The position numbers and the translations under genes are program-made. From Rubripirellula amarantea (GTDB lineage: Bacteria > Planctomycetota > Planctomycetia > Pirellulales > Pirellulaceae): DNA of 64,000 nucleotides. The stretch covers positions 1,426,001-1,490,000 of the forward strand of contig NZ_SJPI01000001.1 of assembly GCF_007859865.1 (NCBI RefSeq), read 5' to 3'. Below the pieces are notes generated by a model that worked only from the letters and a program-made list of their open reading frames with translations, had not been told where the DNA came from and did no database searches. Positions 47,611-58,841 of the stretch are shown piece by piece (position 1 is the stretch's first letter; each line of letters opens with the position of its first letter).

Positions 47611-47777
47611 GCTCCGCTGCCATTCCGCATCGACGACCTCTGTTGACGATAGGCTCGATGCCGCTTTCAGATACTTGACTGCATTGCTGATATACTTATC
47701 CGTCACCTTGGAAACTAATGTGACGGAGGTGCCAAAGCTCATTAGTGATTCACTCGACCACACAGGATCGCGAATCA

Positions 47778-50700
47778 ATGCAGAATCGACTGGATCAAAA
47801 ATCACTCGGCGTAAGCAAGTTAAATGGAGGTTTGGGTGTCGCAGCTTTGGTTGCAGTAGCCTGCGTCAGCATGCACTCGCTTATTGCCCATGCACAATCG
47901 AACGCAGGATCGCCACCCACCGGTCCCAGCGTCGAAGCATCGGCCGCTGCATTCAAGACCGATGGTCCGGTTCGAGTCGAAATCGCTGCTGCGGAACCCC
48001 AGGTGGTCGATCCGGTCGCGTTGCGATTTGACGTTCGTGGACGCATGTGGGTGATCGAGATGCGAGACTACCCAACGGGCCCCGCTCCAGGTGAAGATTT
48101 TGATGGTCGTATCAAAGTGCTCACCGACAACGATTCCGACGGTGTGTTTGAAACTGCAACGACGTTTGCCGACGGCTTAGTATTCCCCACGGGATTACAA
48201 CCATGGCGTGAGGGAGTGATCGTTACTGTCGCCGGCAAGATTCAATTCATGATCGACACCGACGGCGATGGTCGTTGCGACAAGACCGAAGTTTGGTTCG
48301 AAGGATTCAGTGAAGACAACGAGCAACTACGAGCGAATCATCCGACTCTTGGGCCTGACGGAATCGTTTACGTGGCCAATGGGCTTCGTGGCGGTAAGGT
48401 AAGATCGGCCAACGCGAAATGGCCTGTTCGTGATACCGCGATTGATCTTAGCGGAAAGGACTTTGCGTTTAATCCCGACGGTGGCTTCTATGGCGCGGTG
48501 GCGGGCAACAGCCAGTTTGGGTTGACGATCGATGACTTCGGAAATCGCGTTGGATGTAGCAACCGGAATCCAGCGATCGAAACATTGTTAACGCTTAATG
48601 AGTTGGCTGACGATCGTTGGTCGGGACCGTCCGATGCACTGCACAATATCAGCAAGGTTGGTCCAGAATCTAAAGTGGTACCAATTGCCAAAGCGTGGAC
48701 AACGAGCCACACCCATGAAGGCCAATTCAGTGCTGCGTGTGGTGTGACGATCGGGCTGGGAACAGCGTTGCCGGAAGGTTGGCAAAATGATCTGGTCGTC
48801 TGTGAGCCAACGTCTTACGCGGTCCAGCGGCAACAATTTGTAGATTCGAACGAAGGTAGGCGTGCGGAGCGTATTGATGCCGCAGGAGAAATGCTAGCCA
48901 GCAGCGATACTTGGTTTCGTCCCGTCGATACGACCGTGGGGCCCGATGGCGGGCTGTACATCGTCGATATGTGCCGCGCTGTCATTGAACATCCCGCTTG
49001 GGCGCCGACCGAACTCAAGGAACGCGAAGATGAACGTTGGGGGAACGCGCGGGGCCGGATATGGCGGTTGGTGGGAACCAACACATCAGCGACCAAGTCT
49101 GTCACCGTGCCGAGCGATGTCGCGAGTTGGACCGAGTGGTTGTGGCATCCCAACACATGGCAACGTCAAATGGCATCGCAGGTTCTTATCGATGAACGTT
49201 CGGAACTGCTGATCCCATTGCTTCTCGATCAACTTAAAGTCTCAACAGCAAGCTTAGCTTCATCAAGCCGCGCCGGTGGTGACGCGAGAGCGATTGCGTT
49301 GTTGGCGCGACGTGGTGCATTGACTCTTGAAATCTTGTCATCGTTCTTAGAGCATGCATCAGTCGAGTTGCGATGTCTTGTCATCAACCAAGTTCGTCGC
49401 ATCAATCTCAACAGCAGGATCGACTCACTTTCCCAAGATCAATGGCTTCCCCGTTGGCTTTCGGATCCATCGCCGCGTATTCGTTTCGCAGCCATCGGAT
49501 TAGCTGGTGATTGGATTTATCAATCGCCCACCAACGCAGATGTCGGTGACATTGCGAAGCTCATTGCACTGACGCCTCATCACGTCGCGATGACGCCTCA
49601 CTTAACGAAACGCTTGGCTACTTTGTCACCGGACGTTGCTGCACAGGTCTTGATCGCCTACATGGATCTAGACCTGCCACAACCAGCGACCACTCAATCG
49701 CGAGACTGGGTCTTTCAAACTGCGCGCCGCGCTGCTTGGGGCGACGGATTTGGGGACGCGAGTAGTACAACCAAGGACCTGGAATCCCAACGACACGCTG
49801 AATCGGAGTTTGTCGACGCAAACGACGCGCGCCTGGCAGATGCTACCTTTCTCACTGCGGGATGGTGTCAAGGACATCTTGCCGCTCGCAGATCCCCATC
49901 AGAACAATTGTCTAAGCTTGGCCGTTCAATCGCCGCAAAATGGATTCTGCTAGCCAAACACCAATCCATAGGCATCGCATCTGATCCCGCGAAACCAATT
50001 GCCCTTCGAATGGCCGCGATCGACGTTGTCGAAGGATTTGAACTTCCGCGTGGTGATCTGTACGAGACGCTTCTAACTGGCAATAGTGCTTCGACGTTGC
50101 AGTTGAAAGTACTTCCGTGGCTATTGAAACATCATCAAGAAACAACGTTGCGTTGGATTGCCGAGAACGTGACGGGCATTGATCCGGAACTGCGTTTGAG
50201 TGTCATTGAGCAAATGACTCGCAACGATGAGATGGCTCTAACGCTTTTAACTTGGCTTGAGAGCGGTAGTTTACCAGCGACATTCGTTTCGCTTTCCCAA
50301 GCGGATCGTCTGACTCAGTTTAAGAACGATGATGTCGCAAGCCGAGCGAGCGAGATATTTCAGGCAGCTCGTAAAGATCGCTTGTCCGTAATCGCCGATT
50401 ATCAGCGGTCGCTTAGCGGTACAGCCGACTTGGCGAATGGCAAGGCGTTGTTCGTTCAACACTGCGCGACTTGCCACCGAATCGGAGCCGTCGGAGTCGA
50501 AGTTGGACCAGACATCTCGGACAGTCGCACCAAGACTCCGGCGTCGTTGTTGACCGCGATCTTGGACCCCAGTGCTGCCGTGGACGCGGGATTCTTGGGC
50601 TATCAAGTCTTGTTGGTCGATGGTGTCGCTCATACGGGCTCATTAGTTTCACAATCCGACCAACATGTTTCGTTGATGTTGGCGGGTGGTGATACAAAGG

Positions 50701-50870
50701 TCTTTGATCGCGATGATATCGACCAACTGAGGTCCACAGGCATTTCGCTGATGCCCGAAGGTTTCGAACGAAACCTTTCCATTGTCCAAATGCGTCACTT
50801 GATTGGCTATTTAAAAGGATGGCGTTATCTCGGTCAGGGTGAAACAACGCTTGCGCTGGACAACCTTTGA
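47778..50870 (+). CDS. PVC-type membrane-bound dehydrogenase with C-terminal heme domain
   Basis: 1030 residues from the ATG at 47778; a GTG at 47745 is in frame but its nearest GGAGG is 15 bases away. A signal segment (LGVAALVAVACVSMHSLIAHA) is followed by a beta-propeller dehydrogenase domain of the Pirellula/Verrucomicrobium type (about 50-440, with DGRIKVLTDNDSDGVFETAT and DGRCDKTEVWFEGF), HEAT-like helical repeats (about 440-830), and a cytochrome-c-like domain with C896-A-T-C899-H900 for covalent heme. Probably a periplasmic sugar or alcohol oxidoreductase; the substrate is unknown. Convergent with the gene at 50895. Confidence 0.9.
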   Translation: MQNRLDQKSLGVSKLNGGLGVAALVAVACVSMHSLIAHAQSNAGSPPTGPSVEASAAAFKTDGPVRVEIAAAEPQVVDPVALRFDVRGRMWVIEMRDYPTGPAPGEDFDGRIKVLTDNDSDGVFETATTFADGLVFPTGLQPWREGVIVTVAGKIQFMIDTDGDGRCDKTEVWFEGFSEDNEQLRANHPTLGPDGIVYVANGLRGGKVRSANAKWPVRDTAIDLSGKDFAFNPDGGFYGAVAGNSQFGLTIDDFGNRVGCSNRNPAIETLLTLNELADDRWSGPSDALHNISKVGPESKVVPIAKAWTTSHTHEGQFSAACGVTIGLGTALPEGWQNDLVVCEPTSYAVQRQQFVDSNEGRRAERIDAAGEMLASSDTWFRPVDTTVGPDGGLYIVDMCRAVIEHPAWAPTELKEREDERWGNARGRIWRLVGTNTSATKSVTVPSDVASWTEWLWHPNTWQRQMASQVLIDERSELLIPLLLDQLKVSTASLASSSRAGGDARAIALLARRGALTLEILSSFLEHASVELRCLVINQVRRINLNSRIDSLSQDQWLPRWLSDPSPRIRFAAIGLAGDWIYQSPTNADVGDIAKLIALTPHHVAMTPHLTKRLATLSPDVAAQVLIAYMDLDLPQPATTQSRDWVFQTARRAAWGDGFGDASSTTKDLESQRHAESEFVDANDARLADATFLTAGWCQGHLAARRSPSEQLSKLGRSIAAKWILLAKHQSIGIASDPAKPIALRMAAIDVVEGFELPRGDLYETLLTGNSASTLQLKVLPWLLKHHQETTLRWIAENVTGIDPELRLSVIEQMTRNDEMALTLLTWLESGSLPATFVSLSQADRLTQFKNDDVASRASEIFQAARKDRLSVIADYQRSLSGTADLANGKALFVQHCATCHRIGAVGVEVGPDISDSRTKTPASLLTAILDPSAAVDAGFLGYQVLLVDGVAHTGSLVSQSDQHVSLMLAGGDTKVFDRDDIDQLRSTGISLMPEGFERNLSIVQMRHLIGYLKGWRYLGQGETTLALDNL

Positions 50871-50894: not shown

Positions 50895-51989
50895 TTACTG
50901 CACGAGTTTCGAGAATCTCGTATTCGTTCGACGTCGCCAAATGAATCCGTCTAGCACGTAGTGTGTGATTTGAGGCACAGCAAGTAAGGGGACAAGGAAA
51001 AGTTGAACCGAGGTCAGGTCTAACGAACCGCCGAACAGCCATGTCCGTTCATGCCAGATTCCAGTGTCCCATAGCAGTTCTTCAAGATAGGCAAGAATCC
51101 AGATCACACCGAGAAACCGGACCAGGAAGCGGAGGTTCCCCGATCGCTCTCGAGGGCGGGCCTTCACCGAGTACCAATACACCAGAACCATGTAGGGGAT
51201 CCCGTGAATGATCACGTTGGTCACGGTGAAAGCGTAATCAGAATCAAAAAGAATAATTCCTACGTACCAACACACTGCTGTCGTTAGCACGACGATGTCC
51301 TTGCCAGGATTGAATTGCTTTAGCGCGACTCCTTGGTAGATGGCTTTGCACGTGTACGCTGCCATGGCAGCCCAGTACATCGGCGCCGCGACGGTAGAGA
51401 CGAAGTCTGGCAATTTCGCGAAGTCGCCTTCCAAGAACCAAAAAAACTTGCGAGGTAAATGCGTGTGCCAGTAGATGAGCGGGTAGACGGTAGCTAAGTA
51501 AATCGTCGTCGTGTCAATCCACTTTCCCCAACGGCCTGATTCGCCAGCGCGAGAACGATACAACGCCACCCAGCCGTATTGTTGACGAATAAAGTGAAAC
51601 ACTGCCAAATATGCGAGCAGTCGCCAAAACAGTGATGAGCTTTCGCTGTAGACCGCTATTCCCATCGCGAATGCCAGAATGGGCGTAAGACCATACAACC
51701 ACGGTCGATTGACGAGCTCTTCGCGATCAAAGTAAACGCGAAACCCGGTTGAGTAAACGTGAGCGACGTCGATCATTAAGATCGCAACAATCCAAGTCCA
51801 TTCCGGTGTCTCGCGATCAAGCAAACCCAGGGGCGCACCGATCGCAAGCAGTCCCAATGCGATGATCGCACTGCCTAGGAATGTGCAAAGATCGACCGAT
51901 GGCGAAAACAACCACGGCAATGATTTTCCCGAGCAAGAATTATTGGACTCCGCCCTGCTCTCTTGTTCATAGTTTGACGCTAGGGTCAT
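50895..51989 (-). CDS. Multi-pass membrane protein with intramembrane histidines
   Basis: 364 residues with about nine membrane helices. Conserved-looking polar residues lie at helix ends or inside helices: D74-x2-H77 (MIDVAHVYSTGFR), H132 (VFHFIRQQYGW), H262 (VIIHGIPYM) and H343-x3-D347 (ITHYVLDGF). This pattern recalls histidine-coordinated di-iron membrane enzymes such as Brp/Blh carotenoid dioxygenases, but I do not recognise the family and the similarity is only in layout. The start overlaps the stop of the FAD oxidase gene by ATGA. Last gene of the polyamine/SPFH cluster. Confidence 0.8.
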   Translation of the reverse strand: MTLASNYEQESRAESNNSCSGKSLPWLFSPSVDLCTFLGSAIIALGLLAIGAPLGLLDRETPEWTWIVAILMIDVAHVYSTGFRVYFDREELVNRPWLYGLTPILAFAMGIAVYSESSSLFWRLLAYLAVFHFIRQQYGWVALYRSRAGESGRWGKWIDTTTIYLATVYPLIYWHTHLPRKFFWFLEGDFAKLPDFVSTVAAPMYWAAMAAYTCKAIYQGVALKQFNPGKDIVVLTTAVCWYVGIILFDSDYAFTVTNVIIHGIPYMVLVYWYSVKARPRERSGNLRFLVRFLGVIWILAYLEELLWDTGIWHERTWLFGGSLDLTSVQLFLVPLLAVPQITHYVLDGFIWRRRTNTRFSKLVQ

Positions 51990-53629
51990 GACCTCGACGC
52001 CTTAGATGACGAAGTCCGTCGCATTAACTCACCGGCGACTTCGCTCGCGGCTCGAGTGCCGTGATCGAATGCTTCTTCCATCAATGGAATACCGCTTAGA
52101 TCGGTTCCGGCGAAATGAATCGCACCTAAAGGACGAGCGGCTTCGCGACGACCTGGATGGTCGATGAAACCCACACCGGGTGTCACCATTGCGTGACCCC
52201 ATCGCATCACGTCGATTCGATTGACCAGCGAACCAATGTCTGGATGAGCGACAAGCAAATCGCTCATTACGATATCCGACCAATGTTCCCAACCGAGCGA
52301 AAGAAGCTCTTTGCGAGAAAGTCTTCCGTCGGCAGCCGACATGGGGTAGTACCATGTCAGCACCGTTGAACCGTGGTCGTTTCCGGTTTGATGAGTGGAC
52401 GTCACATAACCCAGTGAATTGCTACCGTAAATGACGTTGTCCCAGCACATGGGAAACCCGTGTTCTTGCGGCCGATCCGACAGATGCACATTCGCGACGA
52501 CCCAGGCACTGTACTGAAAAGCCTTGCTCGCTTGCAAACGAGATGAGGGAAGATCAGAGATCAAGTGCGCAGCCATGTACTGCGGGGCTGCGAAGATCAC
52601 TTGTTCACAGCGATGGGAATGCCATTGATTCGTCTTTACGTCGAGGGAGATGACCGTGACATCGCTCCCAGGGTTCTGTTCAACAGATGCGACGGCGTAT
52701 CCCGATTGAATTCGATCGCCCGTATGATCGGCCAAGTGATGAACGATACGCCCGTTACCCTCTGGCCAGGTTATCACGGCTTGCGACTCTGAATCCTTTT
52801 CCCGTTGTCGCGCCGAAAAATAGAACAGACCGGCCCAAGCGCTCACTAATGATGGATTCACACCGTAGTCGTCGCGGCATGAGTAATCGACTAGCCATCG
52901 CAGTCGTTCGGATGTGAAACCATTCTCGTCCATCCACTGCGACATTGATTGCCGGTCCAATTTCATCGCTCGTGCATCGCGAGTCGTACGCGAAGTAGGA
53001 ATCGTAAACAATCGTTGGCCCTGCTCGTCACGAGCGGAGACCCACTCATCTATCGCAGTCTGAAATCGGGCGAGCTGTTGCAAGTCTTCGTCGCTTGCAC
53101 CTTGGCCGGGGTACAAGCCCTCATGCCAACGACCTTCAAAGAAAACGCGTTCCTCGGGATCGCGACAAAGGAACTGTTCACCGACGACCGGCTCGTCGTC
53201 ATCACCGCCCGGTTCGATCACCTGCATCTCGCGAAACAACTCGATCAACGATCGGTTTTCGCGCATTGGCGTGGGAACATAGTGCGCTCCCCAAGGATAA
53301 GCGAACTTGCCACGTGAACCAGATTTCGCCGTCCCGCCCACGGCTTCTTCCAATTCCAACAACACAAAATCCTCGATCCCCTCGCGTCGAAGTTGCCAAG
53401 CCGCAGAGAGTCCCGCTATGCCACCACCAACAATCACAACACGGGTTCTATGCTCAAGCTTGCCGGTGGGAACATCCATCATGCGATCACGAAGACTGTG
53501 ACCAATGGCGAAATTTGGATTCAGCAATTCGCCAGCAGGCACTTTAACATGACGATCGCAACCACCCATCGTCATGAATGACGAGCCAAGAATCGAAGCA
53601 ATCAATTCGCGACGATTCAATGGTGTCAT
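51986..53629 (-). CDS. Tat-exported lipoprotein FAD oxidoreductase, amine-oxidase-like
   Basis: 547 residues from the ATG at 53629, chosen because it forms an ATGA overlap with the upstream stop. The N-terminus [21 protein letters not shown] combines a twin-arginine motif (R6-R7) with a lipobox ending at C24, so the folded, FAD-loaded protein is probably exported and lipid-anchored. The dinucleotide-binding motif [14 protein letters not shown] starts at about residue 65, followed by VGGTAKSG. The C-terminal [21 protein letters not shown] is the second FAD-contact region of flavin amine oxidases. Given its neighbours it may oxidise a polyamine or a polyamine-modified product; substrate not shown. 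Confidence 0.87.
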
Positions 53630-55146
53630 GGCTGGACGTTCCATTCACTCTCGTAGTACCGGACCAACACTTGATTGTTAAGTTGGTTGACCTCCGTTTC
53701 AACGCGACTCATATCGGCAGGTAGATCAAACAAATCGGACATTACTTCCTTGTTGAGAAACCGAAGTTCATCGATATCCGAAAGTACCGGTCGATCAAGT
53801 GGTTGATTGCGTGCTCGAGCGAGGCCGAATCCCCAAACGCCAAACGTCGGCACTGAAACTCGATACGGCAGAACCGTGAATCCCACCGATTCCATTGTTT
53901 GCAGCACGCACCAATAGGACTTTGGTGCCACCAATGGCGACGTGCACTGAATGCTTAAAACGGCGTCATCCTTCATTCGATCTGACAACATCCGAAAGAA
54001 CCGACTTGTATAGAGTTTACCGATCGCAAATCCGTTGGGGTCGGGAAAGTCAATGATCACCGCGTCAAACTGCTGGCGGCACTCGCTAATCCACATGAAC
54101 GCATCTCGGTTCACAACGGTGACGCGATTGTCATCATAGGCGTGATGGTTCAACTCTTTCATCGGAGGAAGACGGTTGGCCAAGTTTGTGATCGCCGGAT
54201 CGATGTCGACCAATGTCACGGCCTTCACGGTCTCATACTTCAAGATCTCGCGAACAGCTAATCCGTCGCCACCGCCGAGCACCAGGACAATTTCAGGGTT
54301 TGGAATCGATGACATCGGTGGATGCACCAACGATTCGTGGTAGCGGTATTCATCGACAGAATTGAATTGCAAATGCCCATTGAGATGCAATTGAAAACCC
54401 CGGCTATTCTTGGTGACCACGATGCGTTGAAACGGCGTTTGTTCAGCGTAAACGATCGAACCAGAGAGCATATTTTCTTCGGACCAAGTCGTAATCGCAT
54501 CGGATTTGATAATACCAATGACCAAAATACCGATCGCAAGCACGGCCCGTCCTCGCATGGCGCCTAGACCTCGTGGCGAAAGAATCGGTCGCAACAAGTA
54601 GGTCCCCCACAAACCGACTAGCGCATTGAGGATTCCAAACACTAACGACGTTCTCACCAAGCCTAGATAGGGCACCAGCAGAATAGGGAACATCAGCGAT
54701 GCCAGCAGGGCTCCGATGTAATCAAACGTCAGAACTCGAGACACTAGGTCATTGAAGTCCAAATGTTCTTTTAAGATTCGCATCAGCAGCGGCAGTTCCA
54801 ATCCCACCAATACACCGATTACGAACACTATTCCGAAAAGCAGAATGCGAAACCAGTCGATCCACGCGAACGCTACGAATAACAGCGGAGCTGAGGCGCC
54901 GCCGACCAAGGCGAGCGCCAATTCAACTTCGATGAATGTGCGAGCGAGTTTTTCTTCGACGTACTGCGATAACCAAGCACCCACACCAAGAGCAGACAGG
55001 TAGACACCAATTACCAGAGAAAACTGAGTAACCGAATCACCGAGTAGGTAGCTTGCAAGCGTGCCGGCAAGCAATTCATAGATCAACCCGCACGTGGCAA
55101 TCGCCAGAACGTTAAGGTAAAGCAGAAACAGGGGGGCGCGATTCAT
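53626..55146 (-). CDS. Membrane-fused spermidine synthase-like aminopropyltransferase
   Basis: 506 residues. The first 215 hold about seven membrane helices; the rest is a spermidine-synthase (class I SAM-fold) domain. Key elements: the substrate-side Y269-H270-E271 ([11 protein letters not shown]), decarboxylated-AdoMet site G291-GGDG ([12 protein letters not shown]), D314-x-D in TLVDIDP, and the catalytic Asp366 in AVIIDFPDP. It should transfer an aminopropyl group from decarboxylated AdoMet, supplied by the SpeD-like protein of the same cluster, to an amine near the membrane. Such TM-fused versions occur with DUF350 and DUF4178 genes in several phyla. It lies 11 bases after the DUF350 gene. 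Confidence 0.92.
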
Positions 55147-55157
55147 AGAGCGAGCGA

Positions 55158-55436
55158 TTAGCCCATGATTGCCGCGGCGATGATCAGAGAGATACCGATC
55201 ACAATCGCGCTGACGATCATTGCCACCGCAGTATTGTGCTCTTCACCGATTTCTTTAATGATCGAAAACGGCGTTAGCTTCTCCATCAGCAGCAGCGACC
55301 CGAAGAATACGATCACGCCCACGAATGAGAAGATTAAAGCTGCGACCAAGTGTTGGCCAAGCATTTCCCAACTGGTACCGCTCGCTTGAACGACAACATC
55401 TTGCGCAAAAAACATTGCGACTGGCAAAGAAAACAT
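55158..55436 (-). CDS. DUF350 small membrane protein
   Basis: 92 residues with two main membrane helices (about 28-50 and 68-91) separated by a polar loop ([19 protein letters not shown]). The E-x-N-T-A-x-A pattern in this loop is typical of DUF350 (YjfL-type) proteins, which recur beside polyamine and PspA-type genes. The start forms a TAATG overlap with the upstream 55-residue gene, whose last codons supply the ribosome binding site. Confidence 0.9.
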
Positions 55437-55603
55437 TACTTACCTCCTCCATAGGAACCGCCATAAGAGCGTCCGGATGATGAATTATTGACGATGCCGA
55501 GGTCGGGTGCCTTCCAACCATACGCGGCAGCGAATGTGAACCAAATACAGACGGCTAATCCGAAGAACAAATACGTGTTGAAACAAATCGATTTAAAGCT
55601 CAT
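55436..55603 (-). CDS. 55-residue single-pass protein with Gly/Ser/Tyr tail (micro-gene)
   Basis: ATG at 55603, AGGA ten bases upstream; TAA at 55436-55438 overlaps the DUF350 start as TAATG. The protein is MSFKSICFNTYLFFGL, continuing as one membrane helix (about residues 10-28) with AAAYGWKAPDLGIVNN and a tail SSSGRSYGGSYGGGK. It starts eight bases after the DUF4178 stop. Too short for most gene callers, but spacing, ribosome site and overlap make it convincing. It may be a small subunit of the membrane complex or a substrate for modification; that part is inference. Confidence 0.8.
   Translation of the reverse strand: MSFKSICFNTYLFFGLAVCIWFTFAAAYGWKAPDLGIVNNSSSGRSYGGSYGGGK
55439..55449 (-). 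promoter_or_regulatory. Ribosome binding site of DUF350 gene inside the micro-gene
   Basis: GGAGGAGGTAAG, which encodes Gly-Gly-Gly-Lys at the end of the 55-residue protein, sits just before the TAATG. It is a near-perfect anti-Shine-Dalgarno match, so translation of the two proteins is tied together. Confidence 0.85.
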
Positions 55604-55611
55604 GGCGCATC

Positions 55612-57159
55612 CTACTCGCTTGACCGATAGGGGCTGTAATCACTGTTTTCCCATCGTTTGACTTCATAGCTATACATGTAGATCAACGCGCCGATGGGAA
55701 CGATCGAAACGAACAACAACGCGTAGAACATCATCCATGGGTCCACCGATGTCGTTCGTTTGAACATGCTACAGATCGAGAAAATACAAAAGATTGCCAT
55801 GCCAAAGGCGGGCCACAGTAGAAAGAATCCAACACCCATCTCGGGTCGCGGTTGAATTGGTCCCACACCCCAGGATCGTCCTATGAATCCAACGCCGAAA
55901 GCCTTTTCAACCGTTTCGGGTTTTAGGTACGTGGAAAGCGTTAGGTTGATTTCTTGCGATCGACCAGTATCAGACGTTTCAAACGAAATCATTCTTGGTG
56001 GGGCAATGTAGTCTGCGGTCTGGACCTGCTCGCCCGCTTCTACTCGCCAATAGAATTCACCCAAGACATTTTGCACATAGGCAGTGCCCCGATCGTAGAG
56101 GCGAAAGCTGTCGCCGTCATATTTGACGTAGCTACCACTTCGCTTCACATTCGCAGATATCGGTTCGGCGAACGCCCAATGATTTTGATTTTCGATCAGC
56201 CATCGAAATCCAATTTCATGGTTGTAAAGAAGATACTCGCTCCAAGGGTACGTTTTGCCTTCGTAAAGCGCGAATCGACGCAGGAAACCGATCACCGTAT
56301 AGCGATCACCCATCAATTCGCCTTCGCTCCCCAACGGAATTTTGATCGGCAACTTTTCGCTAGTCTTTAGCGTTGAAAAATACAAAAGTTTGCCATCCGA
56401 AACGTCCAACAGCGAATGGCAGTTGTCGCAGGTGATCCGTTGGCTTTGGTCGGGCACATGCAGCGACAAGGGACCGCCACACTTAGGACAGTTCAACTGC
56501 AGAGCGGAAACCAGTTTCGCTTCGACGTACTCGGGGACAGCATCGTCGAGGTCTAATTCCGCCAACCTGATTTCTTTGCCCACGTACGCAACGTTGCGAT
56601 CACCGTATTCAAACGTTGCCAGCGTATTCTCGGCTCCTGCCAAATCAGCAAATCGGTGTTCATGTCCGGCGACAAAGTTCCAAGGTATATCACCTTCAGC
56701 AGACGCAGTCTTTGCAACACCGACTTCGCTAACGGTAAATTCAGCGCGCCCTAACTGAGCTGATTCGCCAACTCGTAACGAATCAAAAGCCGGCAATCGA
56801 ATCGAACTACTTAGTTGTCGTTCGAACATCAAATAGAAGCGACCTTGAGCCTCGGCGAGCCATCCCCATTTTTCTCCTGAAAACGACAAGTACCATTCGT
56901 TCCAAACACCGCCTGCGGGATGGTTGTACTGGACACGACCCAAAATGGTGAAACGTTTGCCGCGGAAGAACCCGCTGATTCCTAGACGAAGCGGCGAATT
57001 GGTTTCGACCAAATCAGCCACTTTGCCGTGATCTTCGATCTTCTTATCGTTGCGAGCGACCGCCGATTGGCAAAACGGACAGATCGTCACCAATGTCGAC
57101 GCGACTTTGAATTCCACCGGGCCACCGCACGCGGGACAAGCGGCTGTACGAGCTTTCAT
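55612..57159 (-). CDS. Duplicated DUF4178 protein with zinc ribbons and membrane tail
   Basis: 515 residues. Two similar halves, each a zinc ribbon followed by a DUF4178 beta domain. The first ribbon has C8-x2-C11 and C27-x2-C30; the second is NCPKCGGPLSLHV with ITCDNCHSLLDV at about 225-255. Each DUF4178 unit has the G-x-R-x(2)-I-x-G-x-V pattern and a W-x-E-Y/W-x-L core (WNEWYLSFSGEKWGWL; WSEYLLYNHEIGFRWL). Two membrane helices follow (about 437-460 and 472-495). Such proteins are known neighbours of SpeE/DUF350 genes; molecular role unknown. The start overlaps the speD stop by ATGA. Confidence 0.9.
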   Translation of the reverse strand: MKARTAACPACGGPVEFKVASTLVTICPFCQSAVARNDKKIEDHGKVADLVETNSPLRLGISGFFRGKRFTILGRVQYNHPAGGVWNEWYLSFSGEKWGWLAEAQGRFYLMFERQLSSSIRLPAFDSLRVGESAQLGRAEFTVSEVGVAKTASAEGDIPWNFVAGHEHRFADLAGAENTLATFEYGDRNVAYVGKEIRLAELDLDDAVPEYVEAKLVSALQLNCPKCGGPLSLHVPDQSQRITCDNCHSLLDVSDGKLLYFSTLKTSEKLPIKIPLGSEGELMGDRYTVIGFLRRFALYEGKTYPWSEYLLYNHEIGFRWLIENQNHWAFAEPISANVKRSGSYVKYDGDSFRLYDRGTAYVQNVLGEFYWRVEAGEQVQTADYIAPPRMISFETSDTGRSQEINLTLSTYLKPETVEKAFGVGFIGRSWGVGPIQPRPEMGVGFFLLWPAFGMAIFCIFSICSMFKRTTSVDPWMMFYALLFVSIVPIGALIYMYSYEVKRWENSDYSPYRSSE

Positions 57160-57605
57160 CGCTGTACCTCGTCATCTGTATGGCCCTGATCGCTTCGATC
57201 GACAAGGTTGCCTCGAGGAATCTGCTTCACTTCCACACGACTGGCCCCAAGGCGATCTCGTAAATGCGTTTGCCAGTCCCAGGGTTCACGATGACAACAA
57301 CAGTACAAGTTCAATGTCAGAGTCCCAAACTCGGGATACGTATGCACGGCCAAGTGCGATTCACTGAGCAAATACAACAATGTCACTCCGCCGGGCATCA
57401 AACCATCAGGCGAGGGAAATTGATGCGACAGCGGGTGGCCAACGACATTCAGTTCAAGGTCACGGACGACATCATCGGTAATGCGTTTGATCGTCGCTAA
57501 TTCAGTGAGCCGTTGAGGATCACAGCCATTCGCATCGATGATCCATTCCGTTCCCGTAAGGGACGGTGACTCGTTGATTCGAGAGAACGAGGGAAAAGGC
57601 TGCAT
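57156..57605 (-). CDS. speD: S-adenosylmethionine decarboxylase-like proenzyme (SpeD family)
   Basis: 149 residues, close to class 1B SpeD. The self-processing and catalytic residues align with the Thermotoga enzyme: LLSESHLAVHTYPE contains Glu82-Ser83 (cleavage site and pyruvoyl precursor), His88 is the processing base, and Cys103 in NLYCCC is the proton donor. It should produce decarboxylated AdoMet, the aminopropyl donor for the SpeE-like protein. The extended C-terminal tail is charged. It lies 96 bases after the SPFH gene and overlaps the DUF4178 gene by ATGA. Confidence 0.92.
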   Translation of the reverse strand: MQPFPSFSRINESPSLTGTEWIIDANGCDPQRLTELATIKRITDDVVRDLELNVVGHPLSHQFPSPDGLMPGGVTLLYLLSESHLAVHTYPEFGTLTLNLYCCCHREPWDWQTHLRDRLGASRVEVKQIPRGNLVDRSDQGHTDDEVQR

Positions 57606-57630
57606 CGTGCGCGAGCGGTGGCAAAAGTTG

Positions 57631-57650
57631 GAACGGAACTCTTTCCGTTC
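57631..57650. other. Perfect palindrome in the SPFH-speD gap
   Basis: GAACGGAA-CTCT-TTCCGTTC, an 8-bp perfect inverted repeat with a 4-base spacer, 26 bases upstream of the speD start. It lacks a T run and may be an operator, an attenuating mRNA hairpin or a processing site that adjusts SPFH against enzyme expression. Confidence 0.7.
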
Positions 57651-57701
57651 GTGGTGAATATTTCAATCAGCAAGACTAACGAATTCCGTGGTGTCGACCA
57701 C

Positions 57702-58841
57702 TCAGCTTGCCGGTGGTGGTGGCGGTGGCACTTGAGCAAACCAGGCTGCTAATGCGGGCACCTGCGAAGCGGGTAACCATTGTGGCATTCCAGCGCTCCA
57801 AACCATCGTTTCAGAGGTAACTTGGCCTTGGGACACTAAAGATGCCATGACCTCGGCGGTGAATGGGCCTTCCGATTTTCCTTGGTTAGCCACATGCCAA
57901 GCTACACCCTGCGATGGCAAAGCGGGTGGGGTTTGCTGCGCCGAACCCGACGGCTGGGCTGCGCCGGGTTGATGAGCTGCTGAACCCAATCCCATTCCCA
58001 TTTGGTGAGCCATTGCCATTCCGACTCCGAGTCCCATCCCTTCAGCCGCTCCACCACCACTGGGATTTTCCGCCGCGGCTGTCATCGCGGTGCCCATTTG
58101 ATATTGTTGGTAGCGCTGCATGTCACCAATGACACCCATGCTCGTTCGCGTGTCGAGAGCTTTTTCGACAGCTTCGGGCAATGAGATGTTAACGACGTAT
58201 AACTGCGGACAATCCAGCCCGTATTCATCATCAATTCGCTCGCAAACTTCTTTGCGAATGTGCTCGGATAGCTCGGTGTACTTGGTAGCGAGATCAAGGG
58301 CAGGCATTTGTAGCTTGGAAACCACGTCGGCAAACGAGCTCGCGATAATCGAACGTAGGAGCGTCGTAATGTCGTCGGCACCGAAGTCGCCATCAGTCCC
58401 CACGATCTCTTTCAAAAGAGCTTTGGCATCAATCGCGCGAAGCCCGTAGGTTCCAAAACCACGGATTCGAATGGGACCGAATTCGGGATCTCGCATCATG
58501 ATTGGATTGGGAGTTCCCCACTTCAAATCGGTAATCTGAGTGGTACGAACAAAGTACACTTCCGCCTTGAAAGGGCTTGCGAAGCCGTACTTCCAACCGT
58601 TGAGCGTGCTCATGATTGGCATGTTCTGAGTCGTCAGCTCATAGTGCCCCGGTTGATAGACATCAGCAATTTCGCCACTGGACACGAACACGGCAACTTG
58701 GCCGGGTCGCACAATTAGCTGGGCTCCGTTCTTGATTTCGTTTTGGTGCCGTGGGAACCGCCAAACCAGCGTGTTTTGTGAGTCATCGATCCACTCGATG
58801 ATGTCGATCAGTTCGCCACGAAGTCGGTCAAAAAGTCCCAT
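57702..58841 (-). CDS. SPFH/band-7 protein with C-terminal GYF_2 domain (YdjI-like)
   Basis: 379 residues from the ATG at 58841; the frame stays open to 59057 but homology starts at MGLFDRLRGELIDIIEW, typical of the YdjI/virion-core subgroup of SPFH proteins. The SPFH domain covers about 20-250 (LIVRPGQVAVFVSSGEI, then RIRGFGTYGLRAIDAK). A Gly/Met/Ala-rich linker follows, then a GYF_2 (DUF4339) domain at about 315-365 (GPFTAEVMASLVSQG, MVWSAGMPQWLPA). It ends in a polyproline tail (PPPPPP). It probably scaffolds the complex on the membrane. First gene of the cluster. Confidence 0.92.
   Translation of the reverse strand: MGLFDRLRGELIDIIEWIDDSQNTLVWRFPRHQNEIKNGAQLIVRPGQVAVFVSSGEIADVYQPGHYELTTQNMPIMSTLNGWKYGFASPFKAEVYFVRTTQITDLKWGTPNPIMMRDPEFGPIRIRGFGTYGLRAIDAKALLKEIVGTDGDFGADDITTLLRSIIASSFADVVSKLQMPALDLATKYTELSEHIRKEVCERIDDEYGLDCPQLYVVNISLPEAVEKALDTRTSMGVIGDMQRYQQYQMGTAMTAAAENPSGGGAAEGMGLGVGMAMAHQMGMGLGSAAHQPGAAQPSGSAQQTPPALPSQGVAWHVANQGKSEGPFTAEVMASLVSQGQVTSETMVWSAGMPQWLPASQVPALAAWFAQVPPPPPPAS

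What the first reader, a model, noticed from the sequence alone, without database searches (positions are those of the whole stretch)
50895..58841. Eight-gene polyamine/SPFH/DUF350/DUF4178 membrane cluster with an exported amine oxidase-like arm
Seen: SPFH-GYF, SpeD-like, duplicated DUF4178, 55-aa single-pass protein, DUF350, TM-fused SpeE-like, Tat-lipoprotein FAD amine-oxidase-like, and a multi-pass His-rich protein, all on one strand; four junctions are ATGA or TAATG overlaps. Known: SpeD, TM-SpeE, DUF350, DUF4178 and YdjI-type SPFH genes co-occur in predicted polyamine/membrane-stress neighbourhoods, often with a glutathionylspermidine-synthase-like ATP-grasp or PspA. Inference: here neither ATP-grasp nor PspA is present between the clear flanking genes. 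Instead the last two genes suggest that an aminopropylated amine or peptide is made at the inner face and oxidised outside by a lipid-anchored flavoenzyme, feeding the His-rich membrane protein. I do not know this exact combination as a described system.
Basis: partly seen in the sequence, partly recalled or inferred. Interest (0 to 1): 0.88.

Follow-up and report, generated by a model that had tools for sequence, protein, structure and literature searches.

The report
Membrane polyamine make-and-oxidise gene set
A planctomycete gene set pairs a membrane-anchored enzyme that builds polyamine-like molecules with an exported enzyme predicted to oxidise them; the same pair recurs in unrelated bacteria, which suggests an undescribed pathway at the cell surface.

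Summary
The eight genes are real, on one strand, with the reported overlaps; their order is kept in 9 of 23 fetched relatives. The six-plus-two split is wrong: the tightest pair is TM-SpeE and the FAD lipoprotein. In 146 genomes of the order, full-length TM-SpeE occurs in 12, FAD in the same 12, the 364-aa protein in 11 of those. In 294 genomes of the phylum all 22 FAD-positive genomes carry TM-SpeE, often unlinked. On a tree, 57 of 58 FAD-associated SpeEs form one fully supported clade that also holds Gemmatimonadota, alpha- and betaproteobacteria.

The FAD protein resembles P. aeruginosa spermidine dehydrogenase (SpdH): both SpdH heme-b histidines (H54, H562) align with invariant H44 and H479, though SpdH Y443 is replaced by Val. 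So it is probably a Tat-exported FAD/heme b flavocytochrome acting on an aminopropylated amine; substrate untested.

The last protein is not His-rich (7 of 364), but four predicted intramembrane His are invariant down to about 20% identity; its fold is unknown, and some FAD-positive genomes lack it. Related PspA operons are published; this combination I did not find in my searches. New variant of a known kind.

The parts
57702..58841 (-). SPFH/Band_7_1 protein with C-terminal GYF_2 domain (379 aa)
   Evidence: Pfam PF13421 4.6e-99, PF14237 4.8e-18
57156..57605 (-). SpeD-like class 1b AdoMet decarboxylase (149 aa); S63/H68/C83 equivalents present
   Evidence: PF02675 3.5e-24; TIGR03330 67.7 bits, under its cut-off 75.65; alignment; residue roles from PMC10407285 section 7
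55612..57159 (-). Duplicated zinc-ribbon + DUF4178 protein with C-terminal hydrophobic segments (515 aa)
   Evidence: PF13785 two stretches, 5.5e-35; hydrophobic segments by eye
55436..55603 (-). 55-aa single-pass protein, Gly/Ser/Tyr-rich tail
   Evidence: no Pfam hit; homologues in 9 of 23 loci
55158..55436 (-). DUF350 membrane protein (92 aa)
   Evidence: PF03994 4.1e-11
53626..55146 (-). TM-SpeE: six or seven predicted transmembrane segments fused to an aminopropyltransferase domain (506 aa); D366 and D369 invariant
   Evidence: NCBIfam PRK03612 644.4 bits; PF01564 1.7e-40; invariant columns; topology
51986..53629 (-). Tat-lipoprotein FAD protein (547 aa), SpdH-like flavocytochrome candidate; heme-b ligand candidates H44 and H479
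   Evidence: PF01593 6e-22; Foldseek best 7d9j (SpdH) 4.0e-24; hhalign to SpdH 99.3%, 1.4e-20; conservation
50895..51989 (-). TM364: about ten-pass membrane protein of no named family; D33, H77, H132, Q136, H262, H343, D347, W351 invariant in rows with letters
   Evidence: no Pfam or NCBIfam hit; conservation; AF2 pLDDT 71.3, pTM 0.70; no Foldseek PDB match with E <= 0.001

Best explanation
It is a membrane polyamine make-and-oxidise module. SpeD makes decarboxylated AdoMet. The TM-fused SpeE transfers its aminopropyl group to an amine at the inner membrane. The product reaches the periplasmic side and is oxidised by the Tat-exported, lipid-anchored FAD protein, a relative of spermidine dehydrogenase (SpdH) that probably carries heme b on H44 and H479 and so passes electrons to a membrane or c-type acceptor rather than directly to oxygen. 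In Planctomycetota TM364 is an added partner; its four predicted intramembrane histidines suggest heme or metal binding, so an electron acceptor toward quinone is possible but unproved. SPFH, DUF4178 and DUF350 would organise the membrane site. Shown by computation: gene content, co-occurrence, one SpeE clade, SpdH homology and conservation of the ligand histidines. Inferred: substrate, product, direction of transport, heme occupancy, the role of TM364 and of the scaffold proteins.
For: Co-occurrence: 12 of 146 order genomes have full-length TM-SpeE, the same 12 have FAD, 11 of these have close TM364 and no other of the 146 does (four others have only distant matches, E 1e-7 to 1e-9). In 294 phylum genomes: SpeE 30 (E<=1e-60), FAD 22 (E<=1e-40, all within the 30), TM364 at E<1e-30 in 18 (17 within the 22) (Fisher 7e-27 and 3e-22, not corrected for kinship). 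Unlinked but retained: e.g. single-contig genome G121 (SpeE-FAD near 4.26 Mb, TM364 near 2.32 Mb) and G137 (three contigs of 0.53 to 1.37 Mb). One fully supported (100/100) SpeE clade holds 57 of 58 FAD-associated rows and none of the 10 others. Same pair adjacent in seven plasmid records of Novosphingobium (3), Burkholderia (3), Gemmatirosa (1) (hit coordinates). SpdH relation; ligand His H54->H44 (51 of 51 rows with letters) and H562->H479 (52 of 52); heme ligation by His54/His562 from PMC12564564 passages. Precedent: PMC11107197 passages note the Tat signal of PAO1 SpdH and propose periplasmic oxidation of a SpeE2 product.
Against: Foldseek separates SpdH (4.0e-24) from monoamine and putrescine oxidases (2.6e-23 and on) only slightly, and a sequence-profile search of the PDB lists MAO, polyamine oxidases and others but not SpdH (23 rows at E<=1e-5; best 60 of 263 at E<=10). 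PaSpDH Y443, mutated in 7d9j, aligns with Val (50 of 52 rows), so the active site probably differs. Heme binding was not tested; one of 11 other amine-oxidase-family proteins of the genome (L209) also has His at both aligned columns, though its first lies before its probable start and not in a GHxxR motif. TM364 is missing in five of six FAD-positive, TM364-negative genomes rechecked with a broader model (the sixth, G267, has only a weak match), and it occurs without a SpeE or FAD match in G175 and G153. G287 carries FAD, but its SpeE falls outside the clade. Nothing shows that the FAD protein acts on the SpeE product.
Confidence: 0.55

Rival explanations
1. An envelope-stress module of the PSP kind. 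Polyamine level or aminopropylation is a sensed signal; SPFH stands in for PspA, and the FAD enzyme only keeps the polyamine level in bounds.
For: PMC11237479 (passages) links TM-SpeE, DUF350 and DUF4178 to PspA and describes variants in which a band-7 protein replaces the PspA dyad. Three of eight FAD-negative planctomycete SpeE stretches here carry PspA (PF04012 1.7e-39 in one).
Against: PspA was found in 0 of 27 stretches that hold SpeE and FAD, and those SpeEs are a separate clade. In L021-L023 no SPFH hit was seen (L021 is cut short by its contig). No regulator lies in the set.
Confidence: 0.25
2. The acceptor of TM-SpeE is not a free polyamine but a lipid, peptide or other envelope molecule; the FAD enzyme then oxidises that aminopropylated molecule.
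For: PaSpDH Y443 is replaced by Val, the window SpeD has NLYCC where the SpeD of L021-L023 has DVFSCG, close to the usual form (usual form recalled), and the enzymes are membrane-bound. PMC11237479 also raises aminopropylation of other substrates.
Against: Two aspartates of the polyamine site region of SpeE are invariant (D366, D369; their role recalled), and the nearest exported flavoenzyme with known activity is a spermidine dehydrogenase.
Confidence: 0.15
3. Ordinary spermidine synthesis beside an independent exported amine oxidase used for scavenging; linkage without shared function.
For: The window genome holds only two Spermine_synth matches, this one (5.7e-41) and a weaker one in a 1091-aa frame (5.0e-13, also over the cut-off), so this SpeE could make the cell's spermidine. 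Table text in PMC4334474 lists spermidine for some Planctomycetes, sym-homospermidine for most (passages).
Against: Co-retention when unlinked and one SpeE clade across four bacterial groups are not expected of chance neighbours; 132 of 146 genomes of the order lack any match to the SpeE profile at E<=1e-30, so the module is not a general spermidine pathway there.
Confidence: 0.05

Closest known systems
PspA / TM-spermidine synthase / DUF350 / DUF4178 operons (AAN56744.1, AAN56746.1, AAN56747.1 group and the ATP-grasp variants, PMC11237479, passages)
   Same: TM-fused SpeE, DUF350, DUF4178, membrane setting; [quoted passage not shown]
   Different: No PspA or ATP-grasp here; SpdH-like Tat lipoprotein next to TM-SpeE; SpeE in a clade apart from the PspA-associated ones sampled; TM364 added in Planctomycetota
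Spermidine dehydrogenase SpdH of Pseudomonas aeruginosa (PDB 7d9f-7d9j)
   Same: amine-oxidase fold, Tat signal, both heme-b ligand histidines and D282 equivalent
   Different: lipobox, about 20% identity, Y443 replaced by Val, coded beside TM-SpeE; activity unknown
P. aeruginosa PA4773-PA4774 (SpeD2-SpeE2) with SpdH as a proposed periplasmic route to norspermidine (PMC11107197, passages)
   Same: class 1b SpeD + SpeE and an exported SpdH in a proposed make-inside, oxidise-outside scheme
   Different: there SpeE2 is 349 aa, too short for the TM fusion seen here, and spdH (PA3713, recalled) lies apart; here the genes form one set with SPFH, DUF350, DUF4178 and TM364
PigB of prodigiosin synthesis (NCBIfam NF053556)
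   Same: FAD protein scores 1.4e-21, best over its second half; an SpdH homologue also scores 3.4e-12
   Different: 76.5 bits, far under the 850-bit cut-off

Membership tests
SpdH (spermidine dehydrogenase) flavocytochromes | Flavin amine oxidase fold | tested here: met
   PF01593 6e-22; AF2 pTM 0.85; Foldseek 7d9j 4.0e-24, but MAO nearly as good
SpdH (spermidine dehydrogenase) flavocytochromes | Two heme-b ligand histidines (PaSpDH H54, H562) | tested here: met
   align with window H44 and H479 in all three SpdH homologues; 51/51 and 52/52 family rows. Control: 1 of 11 other family proteins of the genome has His at both columns
SpdH (spermidine dehydrogenase) flavocytochromes | Residues mutated in the SpdH crystal structures (D282, Y443; roles not read) | tested here: not met
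   D282 -> D253 in 52 of 52 (but S and N in the two other SpdH homologues), Y443 -> Val in 50 of 52; so filed as SpdH-like, not SpdH
SpdH (spermidine dehydrogenase) flavocytochromes | Tat export signal | tested here: met
   RR in 44 of 44 rows with letters; in SpdH from PMC11107197
SpdH (spermidine dehydrogenase) flavocytochromes | Heme b bound; oxidises spermidine or spermine | not testable with these tools
   needs protein and assay
PRK03612 TM-fused polyamine aminopropyltransferase | NCBIfam equivalog cut-off | tested here: met
   644.4 bits, cut-off 472
PSP-type TM-SpeE operon (PMC11237479) | PspA in the operon | tested here: not met
   no PspA among the eight genes and in 0 of 27 SpeE+FAD stretches
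PSP-type TM-SpeE operon (PMC11237479) | CesT/Tir partner of PspA | not tested
   no dedicated search made
Class 1b AdoMet decarboxylase | S63, H68, C83 equivalents (processing and catalysis) | tested here: met
   present in the window SpeD (counted by eye; roles). NCBIfam cut-off not reached; the AdoMetDC-specific Pro was not placed with certainty
Cytochrome b-like or metal enzyme (TM364) | intramembrane His ligands conserved | tested here: inconclusive
   H77, H132, H262 in 56 of 56 and H343 in 54 of 54 rows with letters, but no fold match

The most novel reading that the evidence does not exclude
The whole pathway is extracytoplasmic: TM-SpeE has seven transmembrane segments, its aminopropyltransferase domain sits outside, its membrane domain (with DUF350) brings in the aminopropyl donor, and polyamines are both made and oxidised at the outer face, with TM364 as a new type of heme or metal membrane protein taking the electrons to quinone. 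Signs: K+R count of the putative inner loops exceeds that of the outer ones in 57 of 57 rows, and the loop before the last segment exceeds the stretch after it in 56 of 57; the last segment is hydrophobic (19-window over 1.6 in 53 of 58). Against: that segment has a median uncharged run of only 13 residues, so six segments and a cytosolic domain remain as likely or likelier.
Probability: 0.15. Interest if true: 0.88.

Novelty: new variant of a known kind. Interest (0 to 1): 0.62.

Why it matters
Polyamines at the cell surface are reported to protect envelopes and alter drug tolerance, yet how they are made and trimmed outside the cytosol is open. Here a synthase and an exported, apparently heme-bearing dehydrogenase are genetically bound across phyla. 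That makes the make-inside (or outside), oxidise-outside scheme, so far only proposed for unlinked genes in Pseudomonas, directly testable, and it gives DUF350, DUF4178 and a new His-bearing membrane family a concrete context.

Tried and rejected
Fold search of TM364 against the PDB gave nothing with E<=0.001, best 0.19; its profile against PDB sequences gave only E 0.48 and 0.66. Pfam and NCBIfam on TM364 and on distant relatives gave no credible family for the membrane part. FAD in viral contigs: none. Profiles of the N- and C-terminal FAD pieces did not retrieve SpdH from the PDB among the rows shown (60 of 216; 9 of 9). PigB was considered and set aside (score far under cut-off). TM364 as an obligate electron acceptor was set aside: it is absent from several FAD-positive genomes. 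An O2-using amine oxidase is disfavoured by the heme ligands but not excluded. Distant TM364 relatives (19-28% identity) lie in other contexts, some beside TPR proteins, which gave no functional lead.

The genome counts rest on draws that the tool made (146 of the order, 294 of the phylum), including incomplete MAGs; contig breaks can fake unlinked genes (e.g. G129, where SpeE and FAD both lie at contig ends; and the fragmented f39 genomes). Two further genomes (G005, G023) matched the SpeE profile only over the catalytic part and are not counted among the 12. Four genomes with only distant TM364 matches are not counted among the 11, nor three with weak matches among the 18. Short SpeE rows and near-duplicates were dropped before the tree (128 loci to 68 rows). 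Gene calls were greedy and are not relied on; one search replaces them.
Full report
Observation. The eight minus-strand ORFs, domain calls and four overlapping junctions are as described. All eight occur in the same order in 9 of the 23 loci found with the 364-aa protein (L003, L004, L007, L010, L012, L014, L018, L019, L025; the 55-aa gene of L025 shows only in the blastp list). L021-L023 hold SpeE-FAD-TM364, with SpeD downstream. In eight loci (L005, L006, L008, L009, L011, L013, L017, L024) TM364 stands apart from the others; L015, L016 and L020 are cut by contig ends.

Is it one system? The standalone TM364 loci looked like a refutation. But of the 13 genomes of TM364 loci that I checked (of 23), 12 carry TM-SpeE and the same 12 carry FAD; the exception is a MAG, G153. 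Over 146 genomes of the order: full-length TM-SpeE 12, FAD the same 12, close TM364 11 of these (absent in G033) and no other. Over 294 genomes of the phylum: SpeE 30, FAD 22, all among the 30; TM364 (E<1e-30) 18, 17 of them among the 22, the other being G175 (Fisher tests, which ignore kinship). In many of these genomes the genes are not neighbours, e.g. G121 on one contig, G137 on three large contigs, and the seven f39 genomes, whose three genes lie on separate contigs (these are fragmented assemblies, so part of that may be contig breaks). A broader TM364 model found nothing in five of six FAD-positive, TM364-negative genomes and a weak match in G267.

Core and clade. On a maximum-likelihood tree of 68 TM-SpeE rows, 57 of 58 FAD-associated rows form one clade (100/100); the exception is G287, whose SpeE and FAD lie on different contigs. 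The 10 FAD-negative rows lie outside. For two of those ten (plasmid records L216, L217) FAD was looked for on the plasmid only. Seven plasmid records show the same pair adjacent: Novosphingobium (3), Burkholderia (3) and Gemmatirosa (1) (hit coordinates). In Novosphingobium ES2-1 the annotated order is SPFH, DUF4178, DUF4178, small protein, DUF350, aminopropyltransferase, FAD oxidoreductase, SpeD. PspA is in 3 of 8 FAD-negative planctomycete stretches and in 0 of 27 stretches with both SpeE and FAD. SpeD also sits beside TM364 away from SpeE in G239 and beside FAD-TM364 in G129, which ties TM364 to the same pathway.

The FAD protein. It has a conserved Tat signal and lipobox. AF2 gives pLDDT 79.5, pTM 0.85. 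Foldseek ranks SpdH first (4.0e-24), only a little before MAO-type enzymes. SpdH homologues came from plasmid records; the one searched against the PDB, L200, matches PaSpDH at 2.1e-229, which places PaSpDH H54 in FEVAH and H562 in NRWSH (counted by eye on that alignment). Profile alignment of the family with SpdH: probability 97.9, E 6.4e-13 with the 15-row alignment, and 99.3, 1.4e-20 with 52 rows. H54 and H562 align with H44 and H479, His in every family row with a letter; D282 aligns with invariant D253; Y443 aligns with Val. PMC12564564 (passages seen) states that heme b of PaSpDH is held by His54 and His562 and is the electron acceptor of FAD. Control: among 11 other Amino_oxidase matches of the window genome, 10 lack His at one or both columns; L209 has both, with its first His before its probable start.

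TM364. In 56 rows, down to about 20% identity, H77, H132, H262, H343, Q136, D33, D347 and W351 are unchanged wherever a row has a letter. Loop charges fit ten segments with both ends inside. The model is modest (pLDDT 71.3) and has no fold match. Two-heme cytochrome or a non-heme metal enzyme are both open.

SpeD and SpeE. SpeD keeps the processing and catalytic residues (PMC10407285 section 7) but has NLYCC where L021-L023 have DVFSCG, a sign that it has diverged. TM-SpeE is the stronger of two Spermine_synth matches of the genome, 5.7e-41 against 5.0e-13. Planctomycetes listed in PMC4334474 mostly hold sym-homospermidine, some spermidine (passages), so the acceptor is open.

Literature. Searches for DUF350 or DUF4178 (35 papers, listing only), for these with spermidine synthase, with SPFH/AdoMetDC/ATP-grasp and for membrane aminopropyltransferases brought up one paper that I recognised as being on related operons, PMC11237479, of which I read passages. 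In those passages it does not describe an SpdH-like protein next to TM-SpeE with DUF4178; it does mention a polyamine oxidase in an ATP-grasp variant. Two papers that hold DUF350 and spermidine synthase (PMC12730115, PMC8416521) were not opened. Subscription papers and supplements were not searched, so the claim of novelty is limited to these searches.

Verdict. A real, conserved and, as far as searched, undescribed variant of the polyamine/DUF350/DUF4178 membrane operons, whose defining feature is a TM-SpeE clade tied to an SpdH-like exported flavocytochrome.

Noticed in passing
L175:8757-10610, L177:9371-11290 (minus strand), also L017:237-914: Where TM364 has left the operon it can sit beside a PQQ_2/BamB-like beta-propeller protein on the same strand: Pfam hits for L175 and L177, but not L180, whose neighbour is a protein kinase on the other strand; L017 judged by eye only.
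   Followed up: partly
L192, L193, L194: Distant TM364 relatives (19-22% identity) keep the four His, Q136, D347 and W351; the open frame of one runs on into TPR repeats (L193) and others lie beside TPR proteins: a wider unnamed membrane family.
   Followed up: partly
L157:10858-11922: A FAD-negative PspA/DUF350/SpeE stretch (G222) is followed by an ion channel with an RCK-type domain, like the potassium channel reported for ATP-grasp variants.
   Followed up: no
window 47745-50870 +: Flanking convergent gene: DUF7133 with a C-terminal cytochrome c-like domain. In the loci compared only weak partial matches (25-36%) were seen, in four loci (L006, L008, L013, L025).
   Followed up: no
L200:2381-5177: In Duffyella an SpdH homologue is followed by an annotated cytochrome c gene, a hint at an electron acceptor of such enzymes.
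   Followed up: no
window 57156-57605 and L021-L023: The SpeD of the eight-gene form has NLYCC where the SpeD of the L021-L023 form has DVFSCG; two SpeD types serve the same SpeE-FAD-TM364 set.
   Followed up: partly
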